Shown here: positions 13,991 to 29,036 of the stretch, one piece after another | How positions within the stretch are numbered: the stretch's first letter is position 1 | Layout: every line of letters starts with the position of its first letter | From: Dyella japonica A8 | Lineage (GTDB): Bacteria; Pseudomonadota; Gammaproteobacteria; Xanthomonadales; Rhodanobacteraceae | Direction of reading: 5' to 3' | NCBI RefSeq assembly: GCF_000725385.1 | Contig: NZ_CP008884.1 | Coordinates: 3,534,001 to 3,598,000 of the forward strand | DNA: 64,000 nucleotides | Notes under the pieces: model-generated | What the model saw: the letters and a program-made list of their open reading frames with translations, nothing else | What the model was told of the DNA's origin: nothing | The model's database searches: none | Program-made: the position numbers and the translations under genes

Positions 13991-14458
13991 CTACAAAACA
14001 ATCCCAGCCAGCCGCCAGATCCCGTCGGAATCGAGAGCAAAGGTGACATTCTGCTGAAGGGTCTGGCCAGCCTTGTTGCTTCCGACAAATAGGACCGTCA
14101 AATAACTTCCCGGGGGGATGTGTTTGTCACCGGAATTGCCGTCGATGCGATTTCGGTTGATCGAAAACCATTGCCGCGTGGCTAGCTGCCCATTGGCCGA
14201 TGCATGCATCGCTTCGCTGTCGATGAATGCAACCCTGGTCGTGGCCGATTTCATGACGGGAGAAGCCATATCCCAAACCAGGCCAGCCTGCCCACTTTCT
14301 ACCGCCGCAAGCGCCTTGAAGGCCGCATCGACGAAATGCCCAGGGTCGAGGTCCGCTTGCGCGGCCCGCACAGCCGGTGGTCGAACGGACGCCACCTGCG
14401 CGGGTGCAGCGACCGAAACGAGCAGGAGGAGTGCGCAGGGAAAACGCTTATTGATCAT
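13991..14458 (-). CDS. DUF4019 secreted protein
   Basis: A 155-residue exported protein. An N-terminal signal peptide (MINKRFPCALLLLVSVAAPAQ) is followed by a single small domain (GHFVDAAFKALAAVESGQAG ... RQWFSINRNRIDG ... GSYLTVLFVGSNKAG ... IWRLAGIVL) that matches the DUF4019 layout. The function is unknown. The ATG at 14458 gives a compact signal peptide; a start at 14473 is also open. It lies beside the IS remnant at 14461, which may have disturbed its promoter. Confidence 0.72.
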   Translation of the reverse strand: MINKRFPCALLLLVSVAAPAQVASVRPPAVRAAQADLDPGHFVDAAFKALAAVESGQAGLVWDMASPVMKSATTRVAFIDSEAMHASANGQLATRQWFSINRNRIDGNSGDKHIPPGSYLTVLFVGSNKAGQTLQQNVTFALDSDGIWRLAGIVL

Positions 14459-14460
14459 CC

Positions 14461-14676
14461 GTGGATTATCCAATTCTTGATGGAGAGCCGGTCGTCCCGC
14501 CCTGTCGATACCAACATGACCATGACTGCACCGCCTATAAACAGCGTCAGGGCATCAAGCGCTTCTTCGCCGGACTCAAGCCATGGCGCTACATCGCTAC
14601 TCGATACGGCAAGCTCCCGGAAAACGTCCTCGGTTTCATCAAACTCGCCGGCATCGTGCCTTGGTTCAAATGCATA
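14461..14676 (+). pseudogene. IS5-family (IS427-like) transposase C-terminal remnant
   Basis: The translated segment TAYKQRQGIKRFFAGLKPWR and the following ATRYGKLPENVLGFIKLAGI match the C-terminal end of IS427-subgroup transposases, which carry the last catalytic Glu region and an IATRYDK-type motif. The usual Glu (as in VERFF) reads Lys here (IKRFF), and no N-terminal half precedes it, so it is inactive debris. Its subgroup and orientation differ from the transposase piece at 21435-21968, so it comes from a separate insertion. Confidence 0.7.
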
Positions 14677-14831
14677 GTTCGTGGCTACAGGCCGTGTCAA
14701 AAGCCGGGGAGCGCCAGCCACACAACCCCGATGTCCAGCGCGATGGGCTCAACACTTTACGAGCGGTCATTGCTATCGACCATGCGCCTGCGGCCATCGA
14801 AAGGAGCAGTCGTCAAGCAACCACTCGATGC

Positions 14832-17800
14832 TTACTGGATGTCATAACCAACACCTGCATTCACAGCGCCGTTACCGCGCGAGGCTGACGCACTGAAGGC
14901 CACGTGCCAGCGATCTCCAATGGGCGCTGTCACGCCGACCGCCAGGCCAGCAGCACCACCCGAGCAAAGACCCGTGCCCGCGACAATACGAGGCGCGCTG
15001 CTACCGGCCCCAGCCGCCATCGCACCGATACCTGCCTGGGCCATGGCGCATTGCGACTGCTGTGTCCGTGACAAGTCCGAAATGCGACGGTTGACGGCAT
15101 TGAATTGGTCGTTGACCTGGTTGCCGAACCCGGCGAGCGCCTGATTCGTGTAGGCGTTGGCTGTGTTCACCGCATTGGATGTTGCCGTGTCGGTGTAGCT
15201 GTTGGCCGCGCTTACTGCCTGCGATGTGACCGTGGTGAGCTGAGCGACATTGACCGCATCCGTGCCAGCCGTACCCGCTGCCACATTGGTGACCTGACGC
15301 TCCGCGCCCGCCGCGCCCACCGATATCGAGTTGGCGCGATCGGCCACCGAGCCGCCACCAATCGCCACGCTGTTGCTCGCGGTCGCCTGCGCACCGGTGC
15401 CGACCGCGGTGCTGGCGCTGCCCGACGCCACCGCACCGGCGCCACCCGCCGTTGCGTCGGAACCCGAGGCCTTCGGCTGAGACGCATTGGCGGTGTTGTT
15501 GACCTGAAAATAACCGGCCGTACCGTCGTTGAGCTTGTTAATGCTGGCAGTGTTCTGGGCGACTTGCTGATTGGTCGCGTTCAACTGCGAGCCGTTGACG
15601 GCATCCGTGCTGGTGGAAGACACATTGCCTTGGTGGACGTTGGTGATGGTGGTTCCGCCCGTGACGCCGCCGTCCGTCGATTTCGTACCACCCAGCGTCA
15701 CACTGCCCTTGCTGGAATCGTCATACTGCACGCCGCTGCTGCTCAGCGTGTTGCTCAGCGCGCTTATCTGGTTGCCGATGTTGTTCACCTGCGTCCCCAG
15801 GTTGTTGATTGCCTGGTTCGTCGCATTCAACTGCGAGCCGTTGACCGCATCCGTACTGGTCGCGCTCACCTGGCCAGCGGCGACGTGGGTGATGGTGCGC
15901 TCCGCACCCGCCGCACCCACGCTCACCGTGTTGGTGGGGCTAGTGCCCGCCACGGCATAGGTGGTGCCATTGACCGTCATGCTGGCCGTGGCAACGGCCT
16001 TGCTGGTGACCGAGCCCGAACCGAGTGCCACATCCCCGACGTTGGCGGCCACGGCGCCGGAACCCAGCGCCACGCCGTTCTGTGCTGCCGCATTGGCGGT
16101 GTCGCCCAATGCCACGGCGCCCGCTGCATTCGCCGTTGCGGTGTTGCCGAGCGCGACAGCGCCTTGACCGTTGGCCGTACCCTGGTTGCCCAGCGCGACA
16201 GCACCCTGACCACTCGCCGTATTGTTCTGACCCATTGCCACCGCACCCGTGCCGGTGGCGGTGTTCGGATCGCCAATGGCCACCGCGCCATCGCCGGACG
16301 CCGTATTGCCCACGCCGATGGACACCGACCGGCCGCCGGTTGCCGTCGCCGACTGGCCAATGGCCACCGCACCTGCGGTATGGGCGACGGCGCCCGTACC
16401 CTGTGCAATGGCATTACCGCCCGTGGCCTGTGCACCATTGCCCAACGCGATATCGTTGGCCACGCTGCTGTTGCCGTTGACACCGGCCACCGCATTCAAG
16501 CCCTGTGCGATGGAGCCGTCTCCATAGGCATTGGCTACCGAACCGACCGCGATGCTGTTGTTGCCTGCCGCATAGCTATCGGCCAGGTTCGAGTTGGTGT
16601 GGAAGTATTTGATGCCGCCGCCACCGATGACGCCACCGATCTGGTTGAACACGTCTTGCGCCGAGTTGTAGCTATTTCCGCCATAGCTCAGGCTAGTGGT
16701 CAGCTGTCCGGTGACGGGATCATACGTGGTATTGCCTCCCAGCCCCGAAGCGACAGAACTACCCAGGTTGGTCAGATTCGAGCCGACCGCGCCAATCGCC
16801 TGGTTCGTGGCATAGAGCTGGCTGCCATTCACCGCATCGGTGCTGGCGGCGCTCACCTGGCCCGCCGCCACTTTGGTGAGCTGACGCTGCGCGCCCGCCG
16901 CACCCACACTAACCACACCGGCAGGCGCGCCGCCTGCATAGCTGTACGCGGTGCCGTTGATCGTGCCGCTAGCCGTCGGTACCGCCGCAGCCGTTACCGC
17001 GGAACCCTGGCCGAGCGCGACATTCGAGCCCGTCACGCCGCTGGCGACGCTCGCGCCCGCACCCAGAGCAACACTGCCCAGGACGCCAGCATGGGCGCCA
17101 GCGCCGATCGCGAGCGACTGGATGCCGTCCGCGGTCGAGTTCGTACCGAGTGCGATCGCATCGGCCTGGCTGACCTGCGCGTTCTGGCCGATGGCGGTGC
17201 CACCAGGCGCGGTCTGCTGCACGATCGCGCCGTTGCCCAGGCCAATGCCGTTGTCCCCGTTCACGACCGTCGTCGGGCCGACCGCCACGGCGTCGGTGCC
17301 GATGGCGAGGGAGTCAAGTACGGTGGAGTTGGCGTGGAAATATTTGGTCGAAGTGACCGAGACCGAGCCGACCGCCCCCTGCAGCTGACGCAGCGTCACC
17401 GCATCATGCGATTCCGTGCCGTCGGCGACGTTGGTGATCTGGCGCAGCGCACCCGTCGCTCCATTGCCCACCGACACCGAGCCGAGCAGGGTGGCATCGG
17501 TCGTGTTGTAGGTCACGTAGCCCAAGCCCGTCGGGATCGAGCCGCTGACCGGCACGATCGCGCGATCGGCCACGGAGCCGGAACCCAGTGCCAGCGATCC
17601 GTCCACGCTGGCGACGGCGCCATTGCCGAGCGCCACGCTGTTGGTGTTGTTTGCCACGGCCGCCGGCCCGACTGCCACGCTGTCGGCCCCCAAACTCTGG
17701 CTGTCCGCCAGTGTCGAGTTGGCGTGGAAATACTTAATCCCCGCGCCGTTCTGGATATTCGTGACGCTGTTGGCAAGGGTGCTAACGTCCCCCGCAACAG

Positions 17801-20800
17801 TCGTCACGCGGCCGTCCAGATTGGTGATGTCCGCGGTGTTCTGCGTCACCTGCTGGTTGGTCGCGTAAAGCTGCGAACCATTCACCGCGTCGGCCGACGT
17901 CGCGCCAAGCACACCCGCCGCGACATTGGCAAGCGTCTGCGCCGCGCCGGGCGCTCCTCCGCTGCCACCCGGGGCCACCAGGGCGAGCTGATTGGCGGCA
18001 CCGGTCTGCTGCACGGGGCCGACCGCACCGTTGGCGACGTTGTTCGTGAGGTTGGTGACACTGCTGCCGAGGTTGGTGATCGCCGTGGCGTTGTTGGCGA
18101 TATTGGTCGTGTTCGTCGCCACCTGCTGGTTGGTTGCGTAGAGCTGCGAGCCGTTCACCGCGTCGGCGCTGGTACTGCTCAGCGCCGCTGGTGCGACGTT
18201 GGTGATCGTCTGGGGCGAACCTCTCCCATGACTGGCATCATAGGCATTCAACGAAGCGCTCCACTGCAAGGCATCCTGCTGCAGCGCGGTGATATTGGTA
18301 GTGTCGGTGGCGACCTGGTTGCCCAGGTTCGTCACGTTGGTGTTGGTCGTGGTCAGCTGGCTCACGTTCACTGCGTCGGTCGGGTTAACGCCCGCCGTCA
18401 CGTTGCTCAGCGTGCGCGTCCCGCCGCTGGCGTTGGCGAAGCTCACCATCGTGCCGCCCGTGCCAGCCCCCAACGTGATCAGGTTGGTATTGGTCGCGCT
18501 GATGCCGCCCGCCTGCTGCACCAGGCCTACCATGCCGTTACCGAGGTTGGTGATCGCCGCCGTGTTGTTGGCGATGTTGGTCGTGTTCGTCGCCACCTGC
18601 TGATTGGTCGCGTAGAGCTGCGAGCCGTTGACCGCGTCCGTCGAAGTCGCGCTTAGCGCACCTGCCTCGACGTTGGTAAGCGTCTGCGCTGCGCCAGGTG
18701 TCGCACCGCTGCCGCCCGGGGCCACCAAGGCGAGTTGATTGGCGACGCTGGTCTGCTGCACGGGGCCGACCGTGCCGTTGGCGACGTTGTTCGCCAGGCT
18801 GCTGATCGCCGTGGTGTTGTTGGCGATGTTGGTCGTGTTCGTTGCCACCTGCTGGTTGGTGGCATAGAGCTGCGAGCCATTGACCGCGTCGGTCGAAGTC
18901 GCACTTAGCGCACCCGCCGCGAGATGGGTGATCTTCAGGCCGCCGGCATCAACGCCGCTGGTGGTCACGCTCGGCCCGCCAGTGATGGTCAGGCCGGTGG
19001 TGTTGAAGGCAGCACTGCCCGCCGTCACGCTGTTGACGCTGAGGTTCTTGGCCAGGTCAAAACGGACGTCATTGCTCGTCGCGCTCTTCGACACGACGAG
19101 GTTGCCGTCGCCGTTGTTGAGATCGAAGCTGTTCCCCGTGGCGCTGCCCAACCCAACGCTGGTCGCGTTGGCGCCCTGGGCGCTCACCTTCCAGCCTTGG
19201 CCGAGGGTAGTGATATTGGTGGTGAGGTTGGCGATGTTGCCGGTATTGGTCGTCACCTGCTGATTGGTCGCATAGAGCTGCGAGCCGTTGATCGCGTCCG
19301 TTGAAGTCGCGCCTAGCGCACCCGCCGCGACATTGGTTAGCGTCTGCGCCGCGCCAGGTGTCGCACCACTGCCCCCCGGAGCCACCAGGGCGAGCCGATT
19401 GGCGGCACCGGTCTGTTGCACGGGACCGACCGTGCCGTTGGCGACGTTGTTCGCGAGGTTGCTGATCGCCGTGGTGTTGCTGGCGATGTTGGTGGTGTTG
19501 CTGGCGACCTGGTTGCCCAGGTTCGTCACGTTGGAGTTGGTCGTGGTCAGCTGGCTCACGTTCACCGCGTCGGTCGGGTTCACGCCCGCCGTCACGTTGC
19601 TCAGCGTGCGCGTGCCACCGCTGGCGTTGGCGAAGCTCACCACCGTGCCGCCCGTGCCCGCCCCCACCGTGATCAGGTTGGCATTGGTCGCACTGATGCC
19701 GCCCGCCTGCTGCACCAGACCCACCGTGCCGTTACCAAGGTTAGTGATCGCCGCGATGTTGTTGGCGATGTTGGTCGTGTTCGTCGTGACCTGCTGGTTG
19801 GTCGCGTACAGCTGCGAGCCGTTCACTGCGTCGGTCGAGTTGGCATTCAACTGCCCCGCCGCGACATTCTGGATTTGCCGCGGCGCGGTAGCCGAACCCA
19901 CGCTGACCACGTCGCCCGCCGCTGGCGCGCCGCCTGCGAAAGCATAGGTGGTACCGCCGATCGAGGCGTTGGGCGTGGCCACGGCCGCCGAGACCGTCGA
20001 GCCGTTGCCGAGGACCACCGCGCCATCCAAACCGGTTGCGACGGTCACACCGTTACCAACCACGAAGGCATTATTGGCGTTGATGGCGTTGTTGTTGCCG
20101 AGCGAATAGGACCCGGTGCCGGCGATGGTGCTGGGGTCACCAAACGCACCGGAATTGGCACCGCTCACCACATTGCCTGTGCCGACGCTGATGCTGTTCG
20201 CGCCGTTCGCCTGGGCGCCCACGCCCATCGCGATCGCGTTTCCGCCAGTTGCCTTTGCATTGAGGCCGATCGAGGTCGTCGCATTGGCGGCAACGCCGAT
20301 ACCGGCGTTGGTGCCGACGGCGATATTGTCATTGCCGGTCACCAGGCTGCCCGAGGCGGCCTTGTAGGTGGCGTTGTACACAACCGTGCCGTCGCCGGTG
20401 CCGAAGGCGACGTTCCGCGCGCCGGAGACGCCCGAGCCGGAGCCCAGCATCGTGCCGGACACGCCCCCACCAATGCCAGTATTTTGCACGCCAGTGACGG
20501 TATTGCCGGCGCCAACACCCACCGCAACGGAACCGGTATTGGCAGCGGATGAGCCAACACCAGCCCCCTGCCCAAAGGCAACCGAGCTGGCTCCGATGGC
20601 CAATGCTGCCGACCCAAGGGCAAGCGAGCCGACGCCCTGCGCCTGGGCTGCGTATCCACCGGCGAAGGCGTTGGTGCCACCGGCATTGGCATTTGCGCCG
20701 ATCGACGTCGCTTGCACAGCCGTGGCCCCCGCCCCAGGGCCGACTGCGGTTGCGGTGGTGTTGGACGCCGTGGAGTAAACGCCCAGCGCCAGACTATTGG

Positions 20801-21968
20801 CCCCGCTGGCGGTGGCATTGACGCCAAAGGCGCTCGAACCAGTCGATCCTGAGGCAGTCGCCGAATTTCCAATCGCGGTGCTATTGTCGCCCACCGCCTG
20901 GGCATGGAACCCGCCCGCGAAAGAGCCCGTGTTCGAGGCGTTCGAATTGTAGCCGATCGCCGTCGCATTGATGGCGCCGGCGTTGGCTGCGAACCCTGTC
21001 GCGGTCGTCCCATCGCCTGTGGCGCGCGAGCCAGCGCCGAGGGCGACTGCCGTGACGCCGGTTGCGATGACATTGTCGCCGTATGCCGTTGCATATTGCC
21101 CGAGGGCTTGAGCGCCATTTCCCACAGCCGTAGGCGCGGAGAAGGCCGTCGTCCCGCCGTTCGCGACCGACAGGGCTCCGATCGCTATCCCTGACGATGC
21201 GTTGACGGTCGCCGGCTGGTTGCAGCTGGCGCTGTTGCTGCCGATCGCAATGTTGGCGCTGAACCCATTGGTTTCCGTCTGGGTGCCGCAGGCGACGGCG
21301 TACTGCGCAAAGGCAGTTCCGGGTACTCCGAACACGCCAAGCAGCACCAGCGCTCCCGAGGCGCCCAGCGCGCCGAGCCCCAGCCTGTCGGGCTTCAGCC
21401 CCGGCAAGCGTTGCGCCAGGCCCGGTTTCACCATTGCCCCAACGTGCGCCTTCGTAGCGTAGAGGGACGGATTGCCTTTCTTCGTCTGATGCATCTCCTG
21501 GCTGCGCTTCTTCCTTTGGCTGTACGGCGCGCAGGGTACGGGGATGACCGCGCCATCCTCCAGCAGCATCCCGCGCGATTGCAGATGACGGTTGACCGTC
21601 CCCAGGATGCGTGGTGCCAGACCATGCGTTTCCAGCAATCGCCTGAAGCTCAGGATCGTCGTCTCGCCCGGGGTCCCGCCTTGCGCCAACGACAGCTGTG
21701 CAAATTTGCGCACGGGCGTGACCTTGTGCATCGCTTCCTCCATCGCCGAATCGCTATAACCAAACCACTGCTGCATGGCGTAGATGCGCAGCATCATCTT
21801 GATCGGGTACGGGTGACGGCCTCGGCCAGCCTTCGGGTACACAGGCTCGATCAACGCAAGCAACTCATCCCACAGCACTACGCGATCCATCTCGGCCAAA
21901 AACGTCTCGCGCCATGTGGATTTGCGTTTGCCGTTGTGCTCGATCTCGGAGAAGTTAATCTGACTCAT
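14832..21968 (-). CDS. Chimeric frame: IS5 transposase N-terminus fused to trimeric autotransporter adhesin
   Basis: A single 2378-codon frame. Residues 1 to about 178 are an IS5-group transposase (MSQINFSEIEHNGKRK start, first catalytic Asp in LLEDGAVIP, EMHQTKKGN), cut just before the second catalytic Asp. From M179 (ATG at 21434) it becomes a YadA-like trimeric adhesin: hydrophobic signal core (LGASGALVLLGVFGVPGTAFA), a first head of 14-residue AIG/ATG repeats to about residue 690, a stalk with nine DA(V/I)NGSQL necks, head modules each opened by KYFH(A/T)NS, and a C-terminal anchor (GLAVGVTAPIGDRWHVAFSA). Such proteins form surface trimers for adhesion and autoaggregation. The normal extended signal region has been lost to the transposase. 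Export would need initiation at 21434; the full fusion would probably stay in the cytoplasm. Confidence 0.85.
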   Translation of the reverse strand: MSQINFSEIEHNGKRKSTWRETFLAEMDRVVLWDELLALIEPVYPKAGRGRHPYPIKMMLRIYAMQQWFGYSDSAMEEAMHKVTPVRKFAQLSLAQGGTPGETTILSFRRLLETHGLAPRILGTVNRHLQSRGMLLEDGAVIPVPCAPYSQRKKRSQEMHQTKKGNPSLYATKAHVGAMVKPGLAQRLPGLKPDRLGLGALGASGALVLLGVFGVPGTAFAQYAVACGTQTETNGFSANIAIGSNSASCNQPATVNASSGIAIGALSVANGGTTAFSAPTAVGNGAQALGQYATAYGDNVIATGVTAVALGAGSRATGDGTTATGFAANAGAINATAIGYNSNASNTGSFAGGFHAQAVGDNSTAIGNSATASGSTGSSAFGVNATASGANSLALGVYSTASNTTATAVGPGAGATAVQATSIGANANAGGTNAFAGGYAAQAQGVGSLALGSAALAIGASSVAFGQGAGVGSSAANTGSVAVGVGAGNTVTGVQNTGIGGGVSGTMLGSGSGVSGARNVAFGTGDGTVVYNATYKAASGSLVTGNDNIAVGTNAGIGVAANATTSIGLNAKATGGNAIAMGVGAQANGANSISVGTGNVVSGANSGAFGDPSTIAGTGSYSLGNNNAINANNAFVVGNGVTVATGLDGAVVLGNGSTVSAAVATPNASIGGTTYAFAGGAPAAGDVVSVGSATAPRQIQNVAAGQLNANSTDAVNGSQLYATNQQVTTNTTNIANNIAAITNLGNGTVGLVQQAGGISATNANLITVGAGTGGTVVSFANASGGTRTLSNVTAGVNPTDAVNVSQLTTTNSNVTNLGNQVASNTTNIASNTTAISNLANNVANGTVGPVQQTGAANRLALVAPGGSGATPGAAQTLTNVAAGALGATSTDAINGSQLYATNQQVTTNTGNIANLTTNITTLGQGWKVSAQGANATSVGLGSATGNSFDLNNGDGNLVVSKSATSNDVRFDLAKNLSVNSVTAGSAAFNTTGLTITGGPSVTTSGVDAGGLKITHLAAGALSATSTDAVNGSQLYATNQQVATNTTNIANNTTAISSLANNVANGTVGPVQQTSVANQLALVAPGGSGATPGAAQTLTNVEAGALSATSTDAVNGSQLYATNQQVATNTTNIANNTAAITNLGNGMVGLVQQAGGISATNTNLITLGAGTGGTMVSFANASGGTRTLSNVTAGVNPTDAVNVSQLTTTNTNVTNLGNQVATDTTNITALQQDALQWSASLNAYDASHGRGSPQTITNVAPAALSSTSADAVNGSQLYATNQQVATNTTNIANNATAITNLGSSVTNLTNNVANGAVGPVQQTGAANQLALVAPGGSGGAPGAAQTLANVAAGVLGATSADAVNGSQLYATNQQVTQNTADITNLDGRVTTVAGDVSTLANSVTNIQNGAGIKYFHANSTLADSQSLGADSVAVGPAAVANNTNSVALGNGAVASVDGSLALGSGSVADRAIVPVSGSIPTGLGYVTYNTTDATLLGSVSVGNGATGALRQITNVADGTESHDAVTLRQLQGAVGSVSVTSTKYFHANSTVLDSLAIGTDAVAVGPTTVVNGDNGIGLGNGAIVQQTAPGGTAIGQNAQVSQADAIALGTNSTADGIQSLAIGAGAHAGVLGSVALGAGASVASGVTGSNVALGQGSAVTAAAVPTASGTINGTAYSYAGGAPAGVVSVGAAGAQRQLTKVAAGQVSAASTDAVNGSQLYATNQAIGAVGSNLTNLGSSVASGLGGNTTYDPVTGQLTTSLSYGGNSYNSAQDVFNQIGGVIGGGGIKYFHTNSNLADSYAAGNNSIAVGSVANAYGDGSIAQGLNAVAGVNGNSSVANDIALGNGAQATGGNAIAQGTGAVAHTAGAVAIGQSATATGGRSVSIGVGNTASGDGAVAIGDPNTATGTGAVAMGQNNTASGQGAVALGNQGTANGQGAVALGNTATANAAGAVALGDTANAAAQNGVALGSGAVAANVGDVALGSGSVTSKAVATASMTVNGTTYAVAGTSPTNTVSVGAAGAERTITHVAAGQVSATSTDAVNGSQLNATNQAINNLGTQVNNIGNQISALSNTLSSSGVQYDDSSKGSVTLGGTKSTDGGVTGGTTITNVHQGNVSSTSTDAVNGSQLNATNQQVAQNTASINKLNDGTAGYFQVNNTANASQPKASGSDATAGGAGAVASGSASTAVGTGAQATASNSVAIGGGSVADRANSISVGAAGAERQVTNVAAGTAGTDAVNVAQLTTVTSQAVSAANSYTDTATSNAVNTANAYTNQALAGFGNQVNDQFNAVNRRISDLSRTQQSQCAMAQAGIGAMAAGAGSSAPRIVAGTGLCSGGAAGLAVGVTAPIGDRWHVAFSASASRGNGAVNAGVGYDIQ
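17880..19740 (-). repeat. Near-identical internal repeats in the adhesin stalk
   Basis: Two unit types recur. One encodes AQTLTNVAAG, DAVNGSQLYATNQQV, then NNVANGTVGPVQQTG and LALVAPGGSG, with copies near 17920-18170, 18650-18890 and 19310-19490. The other encodes GLVQQAGGISATN, GAGTGGT, SFANASGGTRTLSNVTAG and PTDAVNVSQL, with copies near 18310-18550 and 19520-19750. DNA identity is high by eye, so recombination could change stalk length and assemblers may collapse copies. Confidence 0.75.
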
Positions 21969-22035
21969 ATCGATCGTCCCTGTTTGAAGTACGCCCGCGC
22001 CGATGTGTTTCGAGAAACTCGCTCAGAGCTTCCTT
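21435..22035 (-). mobile_element. Truncated IS5-group element, left end and transposase 5' half
   Basis: The transposase start codon is at 21968 and homology ends near 21435, where the adhesin begins. Upstream, the minus strand reads GGAAGCTCTGAGCGAG near 22035, which resembles an IS5-group terminal repeat, and it follows CTAA, a YTAR-type target. The boundary at 22035 is inferred. The right half and right end of the element are absent, so it cannot move by itself. Confidence 0.55.
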
Positions 22036-22650
22036 TAGGGAAGTGCTGTCCCTTGCCCGCGACGCCCAGATTCTCTGCGTGCCGCAGCCAACACATTTTC
22101 TTTCGGATCGTAAGAGTCTCGTCAGGTGATCGACTTTTGATTCGAGGCCAACTTCCTTTGGTCGCGGGTATCGCGCGCGATTCACTGTGACCTGGTTCTC
22201 ATAACACCGGCGCAGCGCTTCATGATCAGCTGCACCCATGGATCTTTTCGCTAAGCCGGCGTCAGGGCGCACATGGTGCTGCGGCGCGACGCCGCGCCAA
22301 TGCCGCCGGTCTGGTCATCACCCGGCGCACCGAGGAAAGCCTGCGCCCTAGCCAGCGGGCGACCAGGCAACGGGATTCACCTTGTTGCGAACGCTCTCAC
22401 TCCAAGGTCTTTCCGGTGTCGATGATGTGCCGCCGAAGTCTGGGTGCCATGCAGCACTCCTTCCGCTTGCACGTCGACGGTTTGTCGCGTCGACCGGCTC
22501 AAGTCGCACCGAAGAGCCGATCATCGGCGTTCAAACCAAAAACAGAAGCAGCCCAGGTATGCTCTGATTTCACCCGTCATCCCGGCGTAGGCTGGGATGA
22601 CGAGCAAACGCCCACGGATCAGGGCACTCCCAAGTCCGACAATGGCCTCA
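22036..22650. other. Non-coding stretch beside the IS fragment
   Basis: No frame here has a recognisable product or a good ribosome site. The stretch contains the near-palindrome CTTCCTTTAGGGAAG at about 22030-22044 and a hairpin repeat at 22575-22602. It looks like decayed sequence between the IS fragment and the beta-barrel remnant. Confidence 0.5.
22575..22602. repeat. Single REP-like hairpin
   Basis: CGTCATCCC (22575-22583) and GGGATGACG (22594-22602) form a perfect 9-bp stem with a 10-base loop. It is a diverged relative of the paired elements at 60920-61024. Confidence 0.7.
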
Positions 22651-22806
22651 TTACCAGGAGTACTTGACGCCGAACCTGGCCTCGCCAGCTCTGTAACGCT
22701 GCGCGCCACCTCGAAGCCGAGCCGACCCCGCACACTCACGGCCTTCGTCCTGTTGCCCTGCAACCCAACAACGCCTTCCGCCCTTGCACCCCATGGGGTG
22801 TGCAGG
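22651..22806 (-). pseudogene. Frameshifted end of an outer-membrane autotransporter barrel
   Basis: On the minus strand, a frame entering after a TAG near 22815 reads PWGARAEGVVGLQGNRTKAV then SVRGRLGFEV. A shift of one frame near 22710 continues as GGAQRYRAGEARFGVKYSW and a TAA at 22651-22653. An aromatic C-terminal residue after alternating hydrophobic positions is the usual end of an outer-membrane beta barrel. Only the last strands remain. This is either a decayed autotransporter gene or a read error at one base; the stop upstream favours decay. Confidence 0.6.
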
Positions 22807-22886
22807 AACGACGAACCAAGCTAGTTGATCAGTGCGCCCCCAAGGGAAGCCGCTTGTCGCATGATGCCCTCATGCGACAAGCGCGC

Positions 22887-25301
22887 TTAAAGCGCCACTT
22901 GGCTGCGGCGCGTGCTGAACGTATCGACCATGGTCACCAGCTGGCCGGCTGATGCGGGCTTGAGCAGGCTTGCGTCGAACGTCAGCGAAGGCTCGACCGC
23001 AAGCGGACGTTGCGGCGGCAGTGACGAATAGAGCATGACCGGCAGCTCGGGAAACTCATCACGCACGGATTGCAGCAACGCCCAGCCGTCCATGCTGTCC
23101 ATGCACTGGTCGGTCAGCACCATGTCAACGGCGTGCTCGCGCAGCAGCGCCAATGCTTGTGTACCGTCTGCCACGGCAACGGTGTGGAAGCCGTAGCCAT
23201 CGAGTAGGTCGCAGATCAGTTCGCGTTGCTGCTGCTGATCGTCAACTACCAGGAGTACGCGGTCCTGACCATCTACATCGACACTCGCATCCTCACCAAA
23301 GAGAGCCTCGATATCCTCCTCGCCGGCACGCTCCAGGTCGAGCGTGAATGCAAAGCGACTCCCTCTGCCAAGTTGCGACTGGATATCCAGCTGGCTATCC
23401 ATGCGCTCCAGTAGCTGACTTACGATGGCCAGACCCAGACCCTTACCTTCGTGCTGGGATGCGTTGCCCCCGCGCTGATAGGGTCGCAGCAGACGTTCCT
23501 TCTCATCCAGCGGTATGCCGATGCCATCATCTTCGATGACGAAGCGCAGTCGGACACGCCCTGCCGTGGAAGCAGGTTGCGCATCCACTGCAAAACGCAC
23601 GGTGCCACGATCGGTAAATTTCGCAGCGTTGCCCAGCAGATTGGCCAACACCTGGCGAAGACGGCGGAAGTCGGCGCGCACCGCCGCCGGCAGCTCCGCC
23701 GCGAACTCACAGGCCAGGCGGTTGCCGTGGCGCTCAGTCGCCAGTTCGGCCTGCTCCGCCACATCGCGCAGGAAAGCCGCCAGGTAACCCGCCGCCAGGG
23801 TCAGCTCCATAGCATCCAGTTCCTCGCGCGAAAACTCCAGCAGTTCGTCGATCAACTCCATCTGCTCGCGTACGTTGCGCTCGATCAGGCTGGCGTAGTC
23901 TCGGCGTGCATCGCCCGCCTGCCAGCGGCGCGTACTGTCCAACACCGAAGCCAGCGGGCCGCGCAGATCATGCCCGATGCGCGCCAGCAGCCCGCGGCGC
24001 GCCTGCAGCGACCGGTCCAGCTGCGCGGTACGACTGGCCACCACGCGCTCCAGCCGGTCGCGCTCGGTGGCCTGCTGGTGATCCAGCTGCACGCGTACGT
24101 CCATCTCTTCGCGTCGGCCGCGTCTGATTTCCACGACGAGCACCACGGCGAGCAACAATAGATCCGGCAATACCGTCGTGGAGAGCACCTGGCTGCTGAG
24201 CGGCGTGTGGAACAGGTAGCTGGAAAAATGCACCACCAGGTCTGTCCAGGCAAAGCCCACCAGCAGCAACGGAAACCAGGGTTTCACCACGCGGCGGCGA
24301 ATAGCGTAGATCGCCGCCACGGTAAGCATGACATCACCGAATAGACACAAAGGCATGATGAGCGCAATGAACATCATCCGACTCAGCCAATAGCTGAAGA
24401 AACCGAGCAACAGATAACCTGCGCCGACGCCTTTGAGCAGCCAGGCCCACCAGCGGCCCAGTCGATCGACCTCGATTGCCGCGTAGCAATATCCATTCGT
24501 CAGAAACAACAGGAGGGCTGCCAGCTGATACATGACCCACGCATTGATGTCCGGGCGGTTCGGCCATAGGTAGACAAGGGCGTAGTTGTCGATGACGCCA
24601 ACCCAGAGGGTATGGCAGAACATACCCAGCGCCATGTACATCAGCACACGGCGCCCATAGATCGCCCCCAACACCACGCCGAACACCGCCAGCAACAGAA
24701 CCGCTCCCAGCATGGCGCCATCCAGCACCGCTTCGCGCAGGCCGTCGCGCAGAAACTCGCCTGGCGTCCATAGTCGCGGCGACAGGCTCACCAGGAGACC
24801 AGGCGTGTAAACACGCATGAGCAAGGTGGCCCTGGCACCTGGTGGCAACACCAGCGGAAACATCGGTTTGCGTTCCGGCAGCGCCCAGACACTCAGCGGA
24901 TAGTCCGTACCTGCCTGCCACTCCTGCCAGCGGCCGGCCATCTCCACGTACAGGCGCACGTCACGCAATCGCGGCGGCCCGGCCTGCAACCAGGCGGAGC
25001 ACGCCTCACCGGTTGCATTGTGCAGACTTACCTTCAGCCACCATGCGGAGCTGCTGTACCCGCGTTGTAGCTCATGCGGCGCCTGAGCTGGCGACAGCCC
25101 GGGAAACAAGGCGAGCGCGCCCTGTGCATCGAGAGTTCGCGACGCATCCTCCGCCATCAGTGCATAAGGCGACAGGTCCAGCATCTTGGCGGGACAAGCA
25201 TCGAGTTCCACGTCGGCTGCACGGGCCGCTGTGTGGGGGGCGAACAGTGCGGTGATCAGCACAACCCAGGTCAACCACAACGCCAGCCTGCGGCGAACCA
25301 T
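22887..25301 (-). CDS. Hybrid sensor histidine kinase with 7TMR-DISM sensor
   Basis: About 804 residues. A signal peptide (MVRRRLALWLTWVVLITALFA) leads into a periplasmic beta-rich DISMED2-like domain (YSSSAWWLKVSLHNATGEAC), seven transmembrane helices (7TMR-DISM), a coiled coil, then HisKA with H-box IGHDLRGPLASVLD, HATPase_c (NLLGNAAKFTD, DDGIGIP, GKGLGLAIV) and a C-terminal receiver (VVDDQQQ ... VLTDQCMDSMDGW). DISM sensors often detect carbohydrates or other small ligands. The ATG at 25301 has GGTGAG upstream; a GTG at 25337, 3 bases past the response regulator stop, would add 12 residues. It is co-transcribed behind its partner regulator. Confidence 0.9.
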   Translation of the reverse strand: MVRRRLALWLTWVVLITALFAPHTAARAADVELDACPAKMLDLSPYALMAEDASRTLDAQGALALFPGLSPAQAPHELQRGYSSSAWWLKVSLHNATGEACSAWLQAGPPRLRDVRLYVEMAGRWQEWQAGTDYPLSVWALPERKPMFPLVLPPGARATLLMRVYTPGLLVSLSPRLWTPGEFLRDGLREAVLDGAMLGAVLLLAVFGVVLGAIYGRRVLMYMALGMFCHTLWVGVIDNYALVYLWPNRPDINAWVMYQLAALLLFLTNGYCYAAIEVDRLGRWWAWLLKGVGAGYLLLGFFSYWLSRMMFIALIMPLCLFGDVMLTVAAIYAIRRRVVKPWFPLLLVGFAWTDLVVHFSSYLFHTPLSSQVLSTTVLPDLLLLAVVLVVEIRRGRREEMDVRVQLDHQQATERDRLERVVASRTAQLDRSLQARRGLLARIGHDLRGPLASVLDSTRRWQAGDARRDYASLIERNVREQMELIDELLEFSREELDAMELTLAAGYLAAFLRDVAEQAELATERHGNRLACEFAAELPAAVRADFRRLRQVLANLLGNAAKFTDRGTVRFAVDAQPASTAGRVRLRFVIEDDGIGIPLDEKERLLRPYQRGGNASQHEGKGLGLAIVSQLLERMDSQLDIQSQLGRGSRFAFTLDLERAGEEDIEALFGEDASVDVDGQDRVLLVVDDQQQQRELICDLLDGYGFHTVAVADGTQALALLREHAVDMVLTDQCMDSMDGWALLQSVRDEFPELPVMLYSSLPPQRPLAVEPSLTFDASLLKPASAGQLVTMVDTFSTRRSQVAL

Positions 25302-25340
25302 ACTCACCGACACCACGCATCCCCCATCAACGGCCACACG

Positions 25341-26120
25341 TCATTCGCCACCATGGGTTTCACGTACCCGCGTGCTTGCGCGAAAGGCCGTGGGCGTCAT
25401 GCCCATGCGTTCGCGAAAGGCCGTCGTGAAATTGCATGCGCTCCTGAAACCAACCTGGTCGGCGATATCCTGCATGCTCATATACGATTCGGTGAGCAAT
25501 TCGCGGCCGCGACGCAGCCGCTCCTCGCGAATCCAGTGAAAGACCGTCACGCCCATGTGTTCGCGGAAGATCGATGACAGTCGCTTGCTGTGCGTGCCTA
25601 CCTTGTCGGCGATATCCGCCAGGGACGGCACTTGGTTTAGATGGTCGCTGATAAAGCGTATGGCCGCGCGAAGCATCACCTCATCTGGGGAAAGCAGCGC
25701 CTCCGGCTCGGACTCGGCGCCCGGCTTTCCGGCGCGCAAACTCAGTTGCAGGTGGATACGAACCCGTGCCAGCACCTCCCTGGGGAGACACGGCTTCAGG
25801 ATATAGTCGACGCCGCCATGGAGCAGGCCTTCCAGCCGTTCTTCGTCGGCACTTGCCGCACTCAGGAAAAGGATAGGAATGTCCTGCGTGCGCGGGCCAG
25901 CTTTCAGCATACGGCACACTGCAAACCCATCGGCGCCGGGCATGCGCACGTCAAGCAGGATCAGGTCTGGCGAAAGCGCCTGCGCACGCTGATAACCCTG
26001 CTGCGCATCCGTGGCGAGATTCACCCGTATGTTTTCCACACGCAACAGCTCGGTGACCGCACGCAACTCTTCGGGATGATCGTCGATGATCAGGACGAAC
26101 GGCTGATGCTTGGCCAACAC
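25341..26120 (-). CDS. Response regulator with AraC-type DNA-binding domain
   Basis: A 259-residue regulator. The receiver (about residues 8-125) has the acidic pair IIDDHPEE and phospho-acceptor D57 in LILLDVRMPG, with Lys in ILKPCLP. The C-terminal AraC/XylS HTH (about 150-259) ends in the typical SACNFTTAFRERMGMTPTAFR. AraC output domains are uncommon among response regulators and usually control metabolic or surface genes. The kinase gene follows directly, so the pair forms a phosphorelay: H-box, hybrid receiver, then possibly a separate Hpt, which is not seen in this window. Its targets are unknown. Confidence 0.92.
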   Translation of the reverse strand: MLAKHQPFVLIIDDHPEELRAVTELLRVENIRVNLATDAQQGYQRAQALSPDLILLDVRMPGADGFAVCRMLKAGPRTQDIPILFLSAASADEERLEGLLHGGVDYILKPCLPREVLARVRIHLQLSLRAGKPGAESEPEALLSPDEVMLRAAIRFISDHLNQVPSLADIADKVGTHSKRLSSIFREHMGVTVFHWIREERLRRGRELLTESYMSMQDIADQVGFRSACNFTTAFRERMGMTPTAFRASTRVRETHGGE

Positions 26121-27097
26121 ATGCTCCTATGAATGCCCATCACGGCTGCCCGATGATCCCGATGCTCTGGGCAGCCAAGCGCAACGGGGAAATTGCTTCA
26201 AGATAAGCCCTGCGCAAGCTTAAGCGAAACCTCCTACGATTTGACCAAAATCCCGTCTTGGCAGACGCAACAAAGCGTGGCTCCCGTGGACATTCCACGC
26301 ACTTCCGTCGGACGAAACCGGGCAGCCGAAAGCTTGTTGATCTCTACCCTCTGACCACGGTGGTTGAGGCGGGGGCTTTACCGCTGCGATACGGCTCACC
26401 GGCATCACCAAATCGCGGCTGAATCGGCGCAGTGCCTGAGCGAAAACAGGTTTGTCCAGCTCGAACACGCCAAGGCAGCGATCGCCGCGGGGCGACGCCA
26501 CTATGACGATGTGCCCGCACAGCTCGCTCGGAAATCACACGCCTTCGGCATTTGCGACCAGGCTTCCCGATCAAGGAACTCTTGCCAACCCATCGCCGAA
26601 CGATAGCCGGCCAACTTATTGCACGACCTAGTGCGCGGCCCTACGGCAGCCCCAACCGATCTCAAAACCAGGGACGGTAGCTCTGTCATGGGACTGCAAA
26701 TGGTTCTTGGCAATCGCGCGGAGACCCCGACCGCAATGTCCACTGAGGTCGAATTTCTTTTTTTGGCATCGACTTACGCCCAGTGACGGGGCCAGGTCAC
26801 TACGGCACTCCTGATCCAGTACGAACAGGATGAGTTGTCGCAATGGCGTTCATGACCGACCGGCGAGAACCGATCCCGGCTGCAACTGGATTCCGGCCTG
26901 CGAATGACGAGCAAAAAACCGCGGCTGTGAGATGTGGCCAGGTCTGTATCGGCTTACGCCAAAGCCAGCCCCCGGCAACGCGTCGCCGTCCCCTCCGGCC
27001 CCGCCGCACCCGGCCTGGATCACCCGTGGCTGCGGGTTGTCGCGCGTGGCGGAACGGGTTGCAGGTCGTGACAGTTGTTATTTGAATGCCTTGCGAC
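26121..27097. other. Long non-coding or decayed stretch
   Basis: About 1 kb with several short overlapping frames on both strands, none with a recognisable domain or good ribosome site. On the minus strand GWQEFLDREAWSQMPKACDF (about 26520-26590) looks protein-like but is soon broken, suggesting an old gene remnant. Bases 26886-26911 are a deleted copy of the ATTCCGGCC repeat. No tRNA or intact IS is seen. Confidence 0.5.
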
Positions 27098-27132
27098 CTA
27101 AATTAGCTTATTGCAACCTTTTATGCCACGCG
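27098..27132 (+). promoter_or_regulatory. Candidate operator upstream of the GlxA-type regulator
   Basis: CTAAAT (27098-27103), 12 bases, then ACCTTTTATGCCACGCG (27116-27132), ending 12 bases before the start codon at 27145. The same 17-mer, with a TTAAAT at the same spacing, lies upstream of the SDR gene (29107-29141). The neighbouring AraC-type regulator is the natural candidate to bind both; this is inference. Confidence 0.55.
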
Positions 27133-27144
27133 AGGGCTGGCCCC

Positions 27145-28119
27145 ATGCAGCGTATCGGTTTCCTGGTGTACCCCGGCTTCCAGATGATGTCGTTGGCCGC
27201 GGCGTCCGCTTTTGAGTTCGCCAACCTCGCGCTGAAACTCACCAATTACGAGGTCTGCATCGTGTCGGGGTCGGGCGGGCCGGTCATGAGCTCGCTGGGC
27301 ACCGCCATCCACACGGAAGCCATGGGCACGCAGCGCTTCGACACGCTGCTGATTGCTGGCGCCGTGGGTGTTCCCGAGGTCGATGCGTCCGTCATCGACA
27401 TCATTCGTGCCGCGCCCAGCACGTCGCGCCGCGTAGCCGCCATCTGCACGGGTGCATTCCTGTTGGCGCAGGCAGGCCTTTTGGATGGGCGTCGGGCCAC
27501 CACGCACTGGATGCTCGCCAGGCAACTGAAGCAGCAGTACGGGGCGGTAACGGTCGAGGAAGACCGCATTTTCATCATCGATGGCGACATCTGGACGTCC
27601 GCCGGCATGAGCGCGGGCGTCGACCTGGCCCTGGCCATGGTCGAACGGGACCTCGGCAGCGAGGTGGCGCGCACCGTGGCGCAACACCTGGTTGTCTACC
27701 ATCGCCGGACGGGCGGCCAATCGCAGTTCTCCGCGCTGCTCGAACTGGAACCCAAGTCGGACCGCATCCAGAACGCGCTGACCTATGCCAGGAGTCATCT
27801 GCGCTCTGCCCTCACCGTCGAGGAACTGGCGGCTGCTGCCCATCTGAGCCCCCGCCAGTTCAGTCGTGCATTCACCGCCGAAACCGGTCAGTCGCCCGCC
27901 AAGGCGGTGGAACAGCTGCGCGTGGAAGCCGCACGACTGATGATGGAGCAGACGCAACATCGCATCGAGATCATTGCCCGCGAGGTGGGGTTCGCCGACC
28001 GGGAGCGCATGCGGCGGGCATTTCTGCGCAGCTTCGGTCAGTCACCGCAAGCGATGCGAAGGCATGCGCTGGGGCAGCATGCCAACGCCATGGACAACGA
28101 CATGTCTCGCGTTGCCTGA
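27145..28119 (+). CDS. GlxA/FtrA-type AraC family regulator (DJ-1/PfpI + HTH)
   Basis: A 324-residue regulator. The N-terminal DJ-1/PfpI-like domain (IGFLVYPGFQMMSLAAASAFEFAN; ICTGAFLLAQAGLLDGRRATTHW) carries the Cys in the nucleophile-elbow position, and the C-terminal AraC HTH (about residues 215-310) ends FADRERMRRAFLRSFGQSP. These proteins act as DNA-binding sensors rather than amidases. The ATG at 27145 is chosen because the PfpI domain starts there; the frame is open upstream but without coding character. It is convergent with the SDR gene, with which it shares an upstream motif. Confidence 0.9.
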   Translation: MQRIGFLVYPGFQMMSLAAASAFEFANLALKLTNYEVCIVSGSGGPVMSSLGTAIHTEAMGTQRFDTLLIAGAVGVPEVDASVIDIIRAAPSTSRRVAAICTGAFLLAQAGLLDGRRATTHWMLARQLKQQYGAVTVEEDRIFIIDGDIWTSAGMSAGVDLALAMVERDLGSEVARTVAQHLVVYHRRTGGQSQFSALLELEPKSDRIQNALTYARSHLRSALTVEELAAAAHLSPRQFSRAFTAETGQSPAKAVEQLRVEAARLMMEQTQHRIEIIAREVGFADRERMRRAFLRSFGQSPQAMRRHALGQHANAMDNDMSRVA

Positions 28120-28173
28120 CGGGAGTCGGGAGCCGGAACCGTGCCGGCACCTGCCTTGCCACGACACCCATGC

Positions 28174-28204
28174 AAAAAAAGGGGCTCGCCTGAGTGCGAG
28201 CCCC
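28174..28204 (-). terminator. Intrinsic terminator after the SDR gene
   Basis: GGGGCTCGC (28181-28189) pairs with GCGAGCCCC (28196-28204) around a 6-base loop. On the minus strand the stem is followed directly by a T-run (A-run at 28174-28180 on the plus strand), 26 bases past the SDR stop. The same stem may also stop the convergent GlxA transcript. Confidence 0.85.
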
Positions 28205-28229
28205 TGCGCAGGTTTCGTCACGACCGGTA

Positions 28230-29036
28230 TCAGGACACCCGTGCCACGAGATAACGCTCCGCCGGCGCCGACCTTGAGAGCTGGGGTAGCAGCTTCTCGC
28301 GCGCTGCTTCATACGCCACCAGATCGCGGGCATCGGGCAAGGCCGGAATGGTGAAGAGCTCGCCCTGATCGAGGCCAGCCAGGGCGGCATCCACCATGGC
28401 GTCTGCGCGCATGACGATGGCCGAAGGCAGATGCTCTACCGGCGTGCCGGCCACGTCCCAGAACTCCGTCGCCGTGGCTCCGGGAAGCACCGCTTGCACA
28501 CGCACACCTTTGGCGGCCAGCTCGTGATGCAGCGAGCGCGTAAAGGCCAGTACATACGCCTTGGTGCCGCCATAGACACCATTGAGCAGTTCGGGGGCGA
28601 TGGCCACCACCGACGCGATGTTGATCACCGTGCCACTCCCACGCTCGACGAAACCAGGCACCGCAGCATAAGTGAGTCGCGTCAGCGCGCTGACGTTGAG
28701 CGAAATCATCTCGGCCATGCGATTCACGTCCGCCTCGAGCAGCGGCGCGGTGGCACCGAGGCCCGCGTTGTTCACCAGCATCGAGAGCGTGCGATCCGTG
28801 CGCAGCAATTGCTCCACGCTGGCGAGGTCGGCGGGATCATTCAAGTCGGCCTGAACCACCTGTACCGAGCGTCCCGTTTCGTCCGTCAGTCGCCGGGCGA
28901 GCGTATCCAGATGCTGGCGGCGGCGCGCGACCAGGATGAGGTCATATCCATCGTGGGCCAGACGGTCCGCATAGATGGCACCGATACCGCTGGAGGCGCC
29001 GGTGATGAGGGCGGTGCCTTTTTCGAGTGTGGTCAT
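28230..29036 (-). CDS. Short-chain dehydrogenase/reductase
   Basis: A 268-residue NAD(P)-dependent oxidoreductase of the classical SDR type: cofactor motif TGASSGIG near residue 14, NNAG, catalytic Ser in NIASVVAI, and YxxxK in GVYGGTKAYVLAF. The substrate is not determined. The ATG at 29036 is preferred since the family starts MTTLEKGTALITGAS; an upstream frame to 29126 covers the motif shared with the regulator gene and is unlikely to be coding. It is flanked by an intrinsic terminator downstream and the 17-bp candidate operator 89 bases upstream. Confidence 0.92.
   Translation of the reverse strand: MTTLEKGTALITGASSGIGAIYADRLAHDGYDLILVARRRQHLDTLARRLTDETGRSVQVVQADLNDPADLASVEQLLRTDRTLSMLVNNAGLGATAPLLEADVNRMAEMISLNVSALTRLTYAAVPGFVERGSGTVINIASVVAIAPELLNGVYGGTKAYVLAFTRSLHHELAAKGVRVQAVLPGATATEFWDVAGTPVEHLPSAIVMRADAMVDAALAGLDQGELFTIPALPDARDLVAYEAAREKLLPQLSRSAPAERYLVARVS

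What the first reader, a model, noticed from the sequence alone, without database searches (positions are those of the whole stretch)
14832..21968. In-frame fusion of an IS5 transposase to a giant trimeric autotransporter
The frame runs without interruption from a transposase start through 2200 codons of adhesin. The transposase breaks just before its second catalytic Asp, and the adhesin lacks the extended signal region usual for the class. Either the adhesin is silenced (cytoplasmic fusion), or it is expressed from the internal ATG at 21434 using the IS promoter. IS-driven capture or phase switching of a surface adhesin would be a useful discovery.
Basis: partly seen in the sequence, partly recalled or inferred. 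Interest (0 to 1): 0.8.

Follow-up and report, generated by a model that had tools for sequence, protein, structure and literature searches.

The report
Adhesin fused to transposase front half
A giant bacterial surface-adhesin gene lacks the usual leader of its family and instead continues in one unbroken reading frame from the front half of a decayed IS5 transposase gene, which likely replaced the adhesin's own start and is predicted to supply its translation start.

Summary
Window 14832-21968 (-) is one open frame of 2378 codons in a complete, single-contig genome. Codons 1 to about 186 are the front half of an IS5-family transposase with its IS left end at about 22033. The rest is a trimeric autotransporter adhesin with a hydrophobic signal core, heads, stalks and an anchor. 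Most related adhesins examined, including others in the same genome, start with an ESPR leader; here no ESPR is found in any frame of window 14000-29000. IS homology runs past the internal ATG at 21434, so that ATG is IS-derived. The transposase part is decayed (28 of 103 residues invariant in 12 intact relatives are changed, five codons missing), yet has no stop and no net frame shift. The IS occurs once in the genome, so a repeat-caused misassembly is unlikely. I read it as an old IS-mediated 5'-end replacement: translation most likely starts in the transposase part, and the retained signal core is predicted to export the adhesin. Silencing, or a start close to the junction, is not excluded. 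No promoter-like site and no second example of the fusion were found; phase switching has no support. A new variant of a known kind.

The parts
14832..21968 (-). single open frame of 2378 codons: transposase front half + trimeric autotransporter adhesin
22035..22038 (-). CTAA one base outside the IS left end; CTAG or CTAA abuts four of five copies compared (possible target site)
   Evidence: sequence
21412..22033 (-). IS5-family left half: left end (GGAAGCTCTGAG...), leader and transposase codons 1-186
   Evidence: DNA alignment to L142; left end shared by G039/G050 copies
21412..21968 (-). transposase relic coding part, no stops; helical part (residues 13-138, a dip at 47-49) predicted to fold, residues 139-193 not
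21554..21560 (-). approximate place of a 15-nt deletion at or beside the first catalytic Asp
21398..21412 (-). junction between IS-derived and adhesin-derived sequence
   Evidence: DNA homology ends 21412, protein homology ends at residue 190
21966..21968 (-). transposase ATG, AGGGA upstream, anti-SD dG -4.8
21729..21731 (-). internal in-frame ATG (codon 80) with GGAGG upstream, dG -9.3, the strongest of the 22 in-frame starts in codons 1-230
21429..21434 (-).
21306..21383 (-). hydrophobic signal core, residues 196-221, ending AFA|Q (predicted signal peptidase I site)
   Evidence: highest 19-residue hydropathy of the protein, 1.93 at residue 197; AWA|QY in the nearest homolog
14844..14960 (-). 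YadA membrane anchor
   Evidence: local model E 1e-10
22887..25337 (-). hybrid sensor kinase (7TMR-DISMED2, HisKA, HATPase, receiver), co-directional, upstream
25341..26120 (-). response regulator with AraC-type HTH, co-directional, upstream

Best explanation
The adhesin gene continues in frame from the left half of a decayed IS5-family element that likely replaced its native promoter, start codon and ESPR leader, and its translation would now start inside the transposase part. Shown: the continuous frame, the IS left end, the point where IS homology stops, the absence of an ESPR, the retained hydrophobic core with an AFA|Q site, the heads, stalks and anchor, and decay of the transposase part without loss of frame. 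Inferred: an old IS copy next to or in the 5' end of the adhesin lost its right half together with the adhesin's start and ESPR in a deletion or recombination; the transposase's own ribosome site (21968), or the GGAGG-preceded ATG at 21731, starts translation; the transposase piece stays in the cytoplasm as an oversized leader; the signal core enters Sec, signal peptidase cuts after AFA, and the adhesin is assembled as usual. Transcription by read-through from the upstream regulator-kinase genes is a guess: no promoter-like and no terminator-like site was found in 21300-22900.
For: Single frame, domains on both sides. IS left end and homology end. ATG 21434 is inside IS homology. ESPR missing here but present in the nearest homolog (Pfam ESPR 44.1 bits) and in other adhesins of this genome. 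The transposase part changed 28 of 103 residues that are invariant in 12 close database transposases, against 0-6 for each of the 12 left out in turn, yet has no stop in 186 codons, and its only gap against these 12 is five codons. Neutral decay at 8-20% substitutions leaves the frame open in only 2-25% of simulations. Internal repeats of the adhesin differ mostly at third codon positions (25, 11, 72), a sign of purifying selection. The helical part of the relic is still predicted to fold (block pLDDT 64-90). The IS is single-copy, so no repeat of it could have misled the assembly.
Against: No orthologous locus or second strain was available, so the age of the fusion and selection on it are not measured. 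The relic may have decayed before the fusion. No promoter-like site was found. The anti-SD pairing at 21968 (-4.8) is no better than that of GTG 21431 (-4.7) and lies between the 10% and 25% quantiles of random sites. A folded 130-residue domain ahead of the signal core may hinder export. The adhesin repeats may have diverged before the fusion. The DNA alignment to L142 contains further 1-2 base gaps that cancel out; the counts in residues 133-186 depend on how that stretch is aligned. The codon-position test (relic 36:4 against 43:27 in seven open copies, p = 0.0017; 18:2 against 32:20, p = 0.023, in the first 132 codons) is weakened because the outlying copy L040 shows a similar skew (20:2), and in the first 132 codons the relic is little worse than L040 at invariant residues (9 of 46 against 10 of 56).
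Confidence: 0.42

Rival explanations
1. The adhesin is silenced: the IS and a deletion removed promoter, start and ESPR not long ago, and the open frame is a young pseudogene that has not yet collected stops.
For: No promoter-like site upstream; ESPR gone; an adhesin frame of this length would stay open by chance in 32% of 60 simulations at 1% substitutions and 10% at 2%; another adhesin of this genome has its ESPR and anchor in different overlapping frames.
Against: The whole frame from the IS start to the anchor is intact; at 5% or more neutral substitutions none of 60 simulated adhesins stayed open, while the joined relic shows much change, though some of it may predate the fusion.
Confidence: 0.27
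2. Translation starts just before the junction (ATG 21434 or GTG 21431, both IS-side) or at it (TTG 21407), giving a 35-44 residue ordinary signal peptide; the upstream transposase frame is untranslated or translated separately and the continuity is incidental.
For: From these starts the n-region (K, R), hydrophobic core and AFA|Q look like a standard signal peptide; GTG 21431 has anti-SD dG -4.7, as good as the transposase start; a plain signal peptide without ESPR occurs in one adhesin of the order (L131); a third of random joins are in frame.
Against: Anti-SD pairing is weak at ATG 21434 (-3.1) and TTG 21407 (-3.5) against a random median of -2.2 and a 10% quantile of -5.4; no promoter-like site; the long relic frame without a stop is then unexplained.
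Confidence: 0.27
3. The fusion is an assembly artefact.
For: Internal repeats in the adhesin can confuse assemblies.
Against: The relic has no second copy in the genome by DNA or protein and no convincing right half elsewhere (only matches at E 0.12 and 0.81), so no repeat of it could make the false join; the genome is one 4.83 Mb contig.
Confidence: 0.04

Closest known systems
Trimeric autotransporter adhesins (type Vc; YadA/XadA-like, with ESPR)
   Same: YadA_head, YadA_stalk and YadA_anchor modules; signal core and Ala-x-Ala site; the G035 homolog shares QY...C.GxQTExNG...NIAIGSN at the predicted mature N-terminus
   Different: no ESPR; native start not found; N-terminus is transposase-derived; ends in YDIQ, whereas 17 of 18 complete related ORFs end in W or L
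IS5-family transposase (PF05598 + PF01609 type)
   Same: 62% identity to the closest database copies over the front half, left end and leader present
   Different: right half, second Asp, Glu and right end missing; five codons deleted; single copy, decayed
Host-transposase fusion genes (recalled, from no call: known mostly from animals)
   Same: a transposase N-terminal domain joined in frame to an unrelated host protein
   Different: bacterial, joined to a secreted adhesin, no evidence that DNA binding matters

Membership tests
Trimeric autotransporter adhesin | YadA_anchor at the C-terminus | tested here: met
   24.5 bits for the C-terminal fragment, cut-off 22.7; 25.2 bits in genome search; not listed in the whole-protein scan
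Trimeric autotransporter adhesin | YadA head and stalk repeats | tested here: met
   7 and 13 stretches
Trimeric autotransporter adhesin | cleavable Sec signal | tested here: inconclusive
   hydrophobic core and AFA|Q present, but 195 residues from the first start; no signal predictor was run
ESPR-type signal (PF13018) | about 25-residue conserved extension before the signal core | tested here: not met
   no match in six frames of 14000-29000 nor at this place in the own-genome ESPR search, which lists ten other places
Functional IS5-family element | DDE triad and both ends | tested here: not met
   second Asp and Glu region absent, no right half found elsewhere; first Asp ambiguous
Functional IS5-family element | left end and DUF772 domain | tested here: met

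The most novel reading that the evidence does not exclude
The helical DNA-binding-like domain of an IS5 transposase has been exapted as the cytoplasmic leader of a trimeric autotransporter: it supplies the ribosome site and takes the place of the ESPR, slowing or steering export of a 2150-residue adhesin.
Probability: 0.15. Interest if true: 0.75.

Novelty: new variant of a known kind. Interest (0 to 1): 0.45.

Why it matters
If the fusion is made and exported, an IS can hand a ready start and leader to a secreted giant adhesin, a route by which mobile elements re-wire surface proteins. It would also be a natural experiment on what the ESPR is for, since an adhesin would have replaced it with unrelated protein; the review PMC8151025 (passages seen by term search) reports that ESPR removal has different effects in different autotransporters.

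Tried and rejected
An orthologous intact locus: AraC and SDR neighbours are conserved in the nine AraC loci fetched from the genus (L107-L115), but a tblastn of the adhesin finds one only in L107 (G012), a shorter XadA-like adhesin with an ESPR, 31% identical, so not an orthologue. The aldo-keto reductase/LysR pair is together in the one locus fetched for it (L116, G011), without the adhesin.

P0020 (2890 aa) at first seemed to share the N-terminus RLGLGAL; a second, better-looking signal stretch lies downstream in it, so I treat the similarity as chance (judgement, not tested).

Other transposase-adhesin fusions: none of the 120 listed of 1674 proteins carries the transposase Pfam label (only candidates sharing most words were scored). 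The adhesin N-terminus gave 6 weak matches and 5 of 233 family genomes at E 1e-8, own genome included (at most 14 candidates scored per genome). Literature searches for such fusions or IS-switched trimeric adhesins showed nothing on point in their listings (one search listed 12 of 29 papers); no paper but PMC8151025 was opened.

One search aligned several loci in the wrong orientation; its rows were not used and were replaced. The promoter and terminator scan and Rfam found nothing; phage records hold only 60-80% identical IS pieces.

Full report
What is there. The window lies in a complete genome of 4,827,500 bases in one contig, at C1:3534001-3598000. On the minus strand an open frame of 2378 codons runs from ATG 21968 to 14832. 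Pfam places the transposase domain DUF772 at residues 50-118, then YadA heads and stalks; the C-terminal 102 residues alone give YadA_anchor above its cut-off. A model built from relatives' C-termini also finds the anchor (E 1e-10).

The IS part. The closest transposases in the protein database are 62% identical over the front half; the best match among 398 genomes drawn from the order is L142, 57%. Four copies from genome G039 and one from G050 share a left end GGAGGGTCTGAACAAGTC, preceded by CTAG or CTAA in four of the five. The window has CTAA, one more A, then GGAAGCTCTGAGCGAGT, so the IS left end is at about 22033. DNA alignment to L142 runs from there to 21412, which is 22 bases past the ATG at 21434. 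tblastn against plasmids extends the protein match to residue 190. The junction is therefore at 21398-21412, and ATG 21434 belongs to the IS. The rest of the transposase, with the second Asp and the Glu, is absent; the own genome shows no other copy and no convincing right half. A five-codon deletion lies at or beside the first catalytic Asp; the DNA alignment puts the Asp codon in the gap, the protein alignment keeps an Asp there, so its loss is not certain.

State of the relic. Among 12 close database transposases (chosen from the 120 listed, one of them a 231-aa fragment), 103 columns up to residue 186 are invariant; the relic differs at 28 of them (11 of 70 in residues 1-132, 17 of 33 in 133-186), whereas each of the 12 left out in turn differs at 0 to 6. 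So it no longer evolves as a transposase. Still it has no stop (its other two forward frames have 6 and 3), its only gap against these 12 is five codons, and the further 1-2 base gaps in the DNA alignment to L142 cancel. In simulations from three open copies, 8 to 20% random substitutions leave the 186 codons open in 2 to 25% of runs: suggestive, not proof, of a kept frame. A codon-position test on eight DNA sequences gives first-plus-second to third position changes of 36:4 for the relic and 43:27 pooled for seven open copies (p = 0.0017), but the outlying copy L040 alone is 20:2, so I give this little weight. Third-position GC is 0.77 in the relic, 0.80 in the adhesin and 0.73-0.84 in two open copies. 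The structure model of the relic folds residues 13-138 into helices (block means 64-90, a dip at 47-49) and leaves 139-193 disordered (mean pLDDT 65.6), as a cut catalytic domain would be.

The adhesin part. Directly after the junction comes RLPGLKPDRLGLGALGASGALVLLGVFGVPGTAFA|QYA, with the highest hydropathy of the whole protein. The nearest homolog, in genome G035 of the same family (47% identity, E 3.6e-15), starts with an ESPR (Pfam 44.1 bits), then a signal core and AWA|QYTNGCMGQQTEQNG, matching AFA|QYAVACGTQTETNG here. Nineteen adhesin-like ORFs in the 31 fetched loci start with an ESPR motif (picked by that motif, so not a rate; two are from this genome); L131 shows that a plain short signal also occurs, and several database hits carry no ESPR label. 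In the own genome six YadA_anchor matches pass the cut-off (of eight listed): by frame length and position four share their open frame with an ESPR, one has an ESPR in a different overlapping frame, and the window adhesin has none; a seventh, below the cut-off, also sits in an ESPR frame. Six frames of window 14000-29000 hold no ESPR (best E 2.5), while a model without them recovers those of L118 and L119. So neither side of the IS carries the old 5' end: a plain insertion is not enough, a deletion or recombination must also have removed it (inference). Four internal repeat pairs of the adhesin (267 codons) differ 25, 11 and 72 times at codon positions 1, 2 and 3, which speaks for selection on the protein at least until recently.

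How it may work. Of the 22 in-frame starts in codons 1-230, ATG 21731 has the strongest anti-SD pairing (dG -9.3); the transposase ATG 21968 has -4.8, GTG 21431 -4.7, ATG 21434 -3.1 and TTG 21407 -3.5; random window sites have 5, 10, 25 and 50% quantiles of -6.1, -5.4, -3.4 and -2.2. So ribosome-site strength alone does not separate the transposase start from the near-junction one. No sigma-70-like promoter and no terminator were found in 21300-22900. Upstream and co-directional lie a response regulator and a hybrid kinase, so read-through is possible but untested. A review of type 5 secretion says that the C-terminal, ordinary part of an extended signal is usually enough for export, with one trimeric exception, and that the extended signal of EmaA matters for proper assembly (PMC8151025, passages seen). 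Export without ESPR is therefore plausible; export behind a folded domain is not shown.

Against the reading. No second strain or orthologous locus was found in the collections searched, so the fusion's age is unknown and a recent silencing remains possible. Phase switching by this IS has no support, since the element is single, half and decayed.

Noticed in passing
window 14461-14847 (+): A second transposase-like relic (DDE_Tnp_1_2 end, 17.3 bits, below the cut-off of 29.2) abuts the 3' end of the adhesin, so both ends of the gene may touch IS debris.
   Followed up: partly
L172 (G000:C1:1034500-1040500): Another adhesin of this genome has its ESPR in a 563-aa frame and its anchor in an overlapping 1317-aa frame, i.e. 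a frame break. Described only.
   Followed up: partly
window 21731 (-): The relic has GGAGG before an in-frame ATG (codon 80) where the open copy L142 has GGAAG and TTG.
   Followed up: no
window 22887-26120 (-): Regulator with AraC-type HTH and 7TMR-DISMED2 hybrid kinase upstream of the adhesin; in G002 the regulator is 79% identical but the kinase only 50% over its C-terminal part.
   Followed up: partly
window 14832-14850 (-): The adhesin ends in YDIQ; 17 of 18 complete related ORFs end in W or L, one in R, which may matter for outer-membrane insertion.
   Followed up: no
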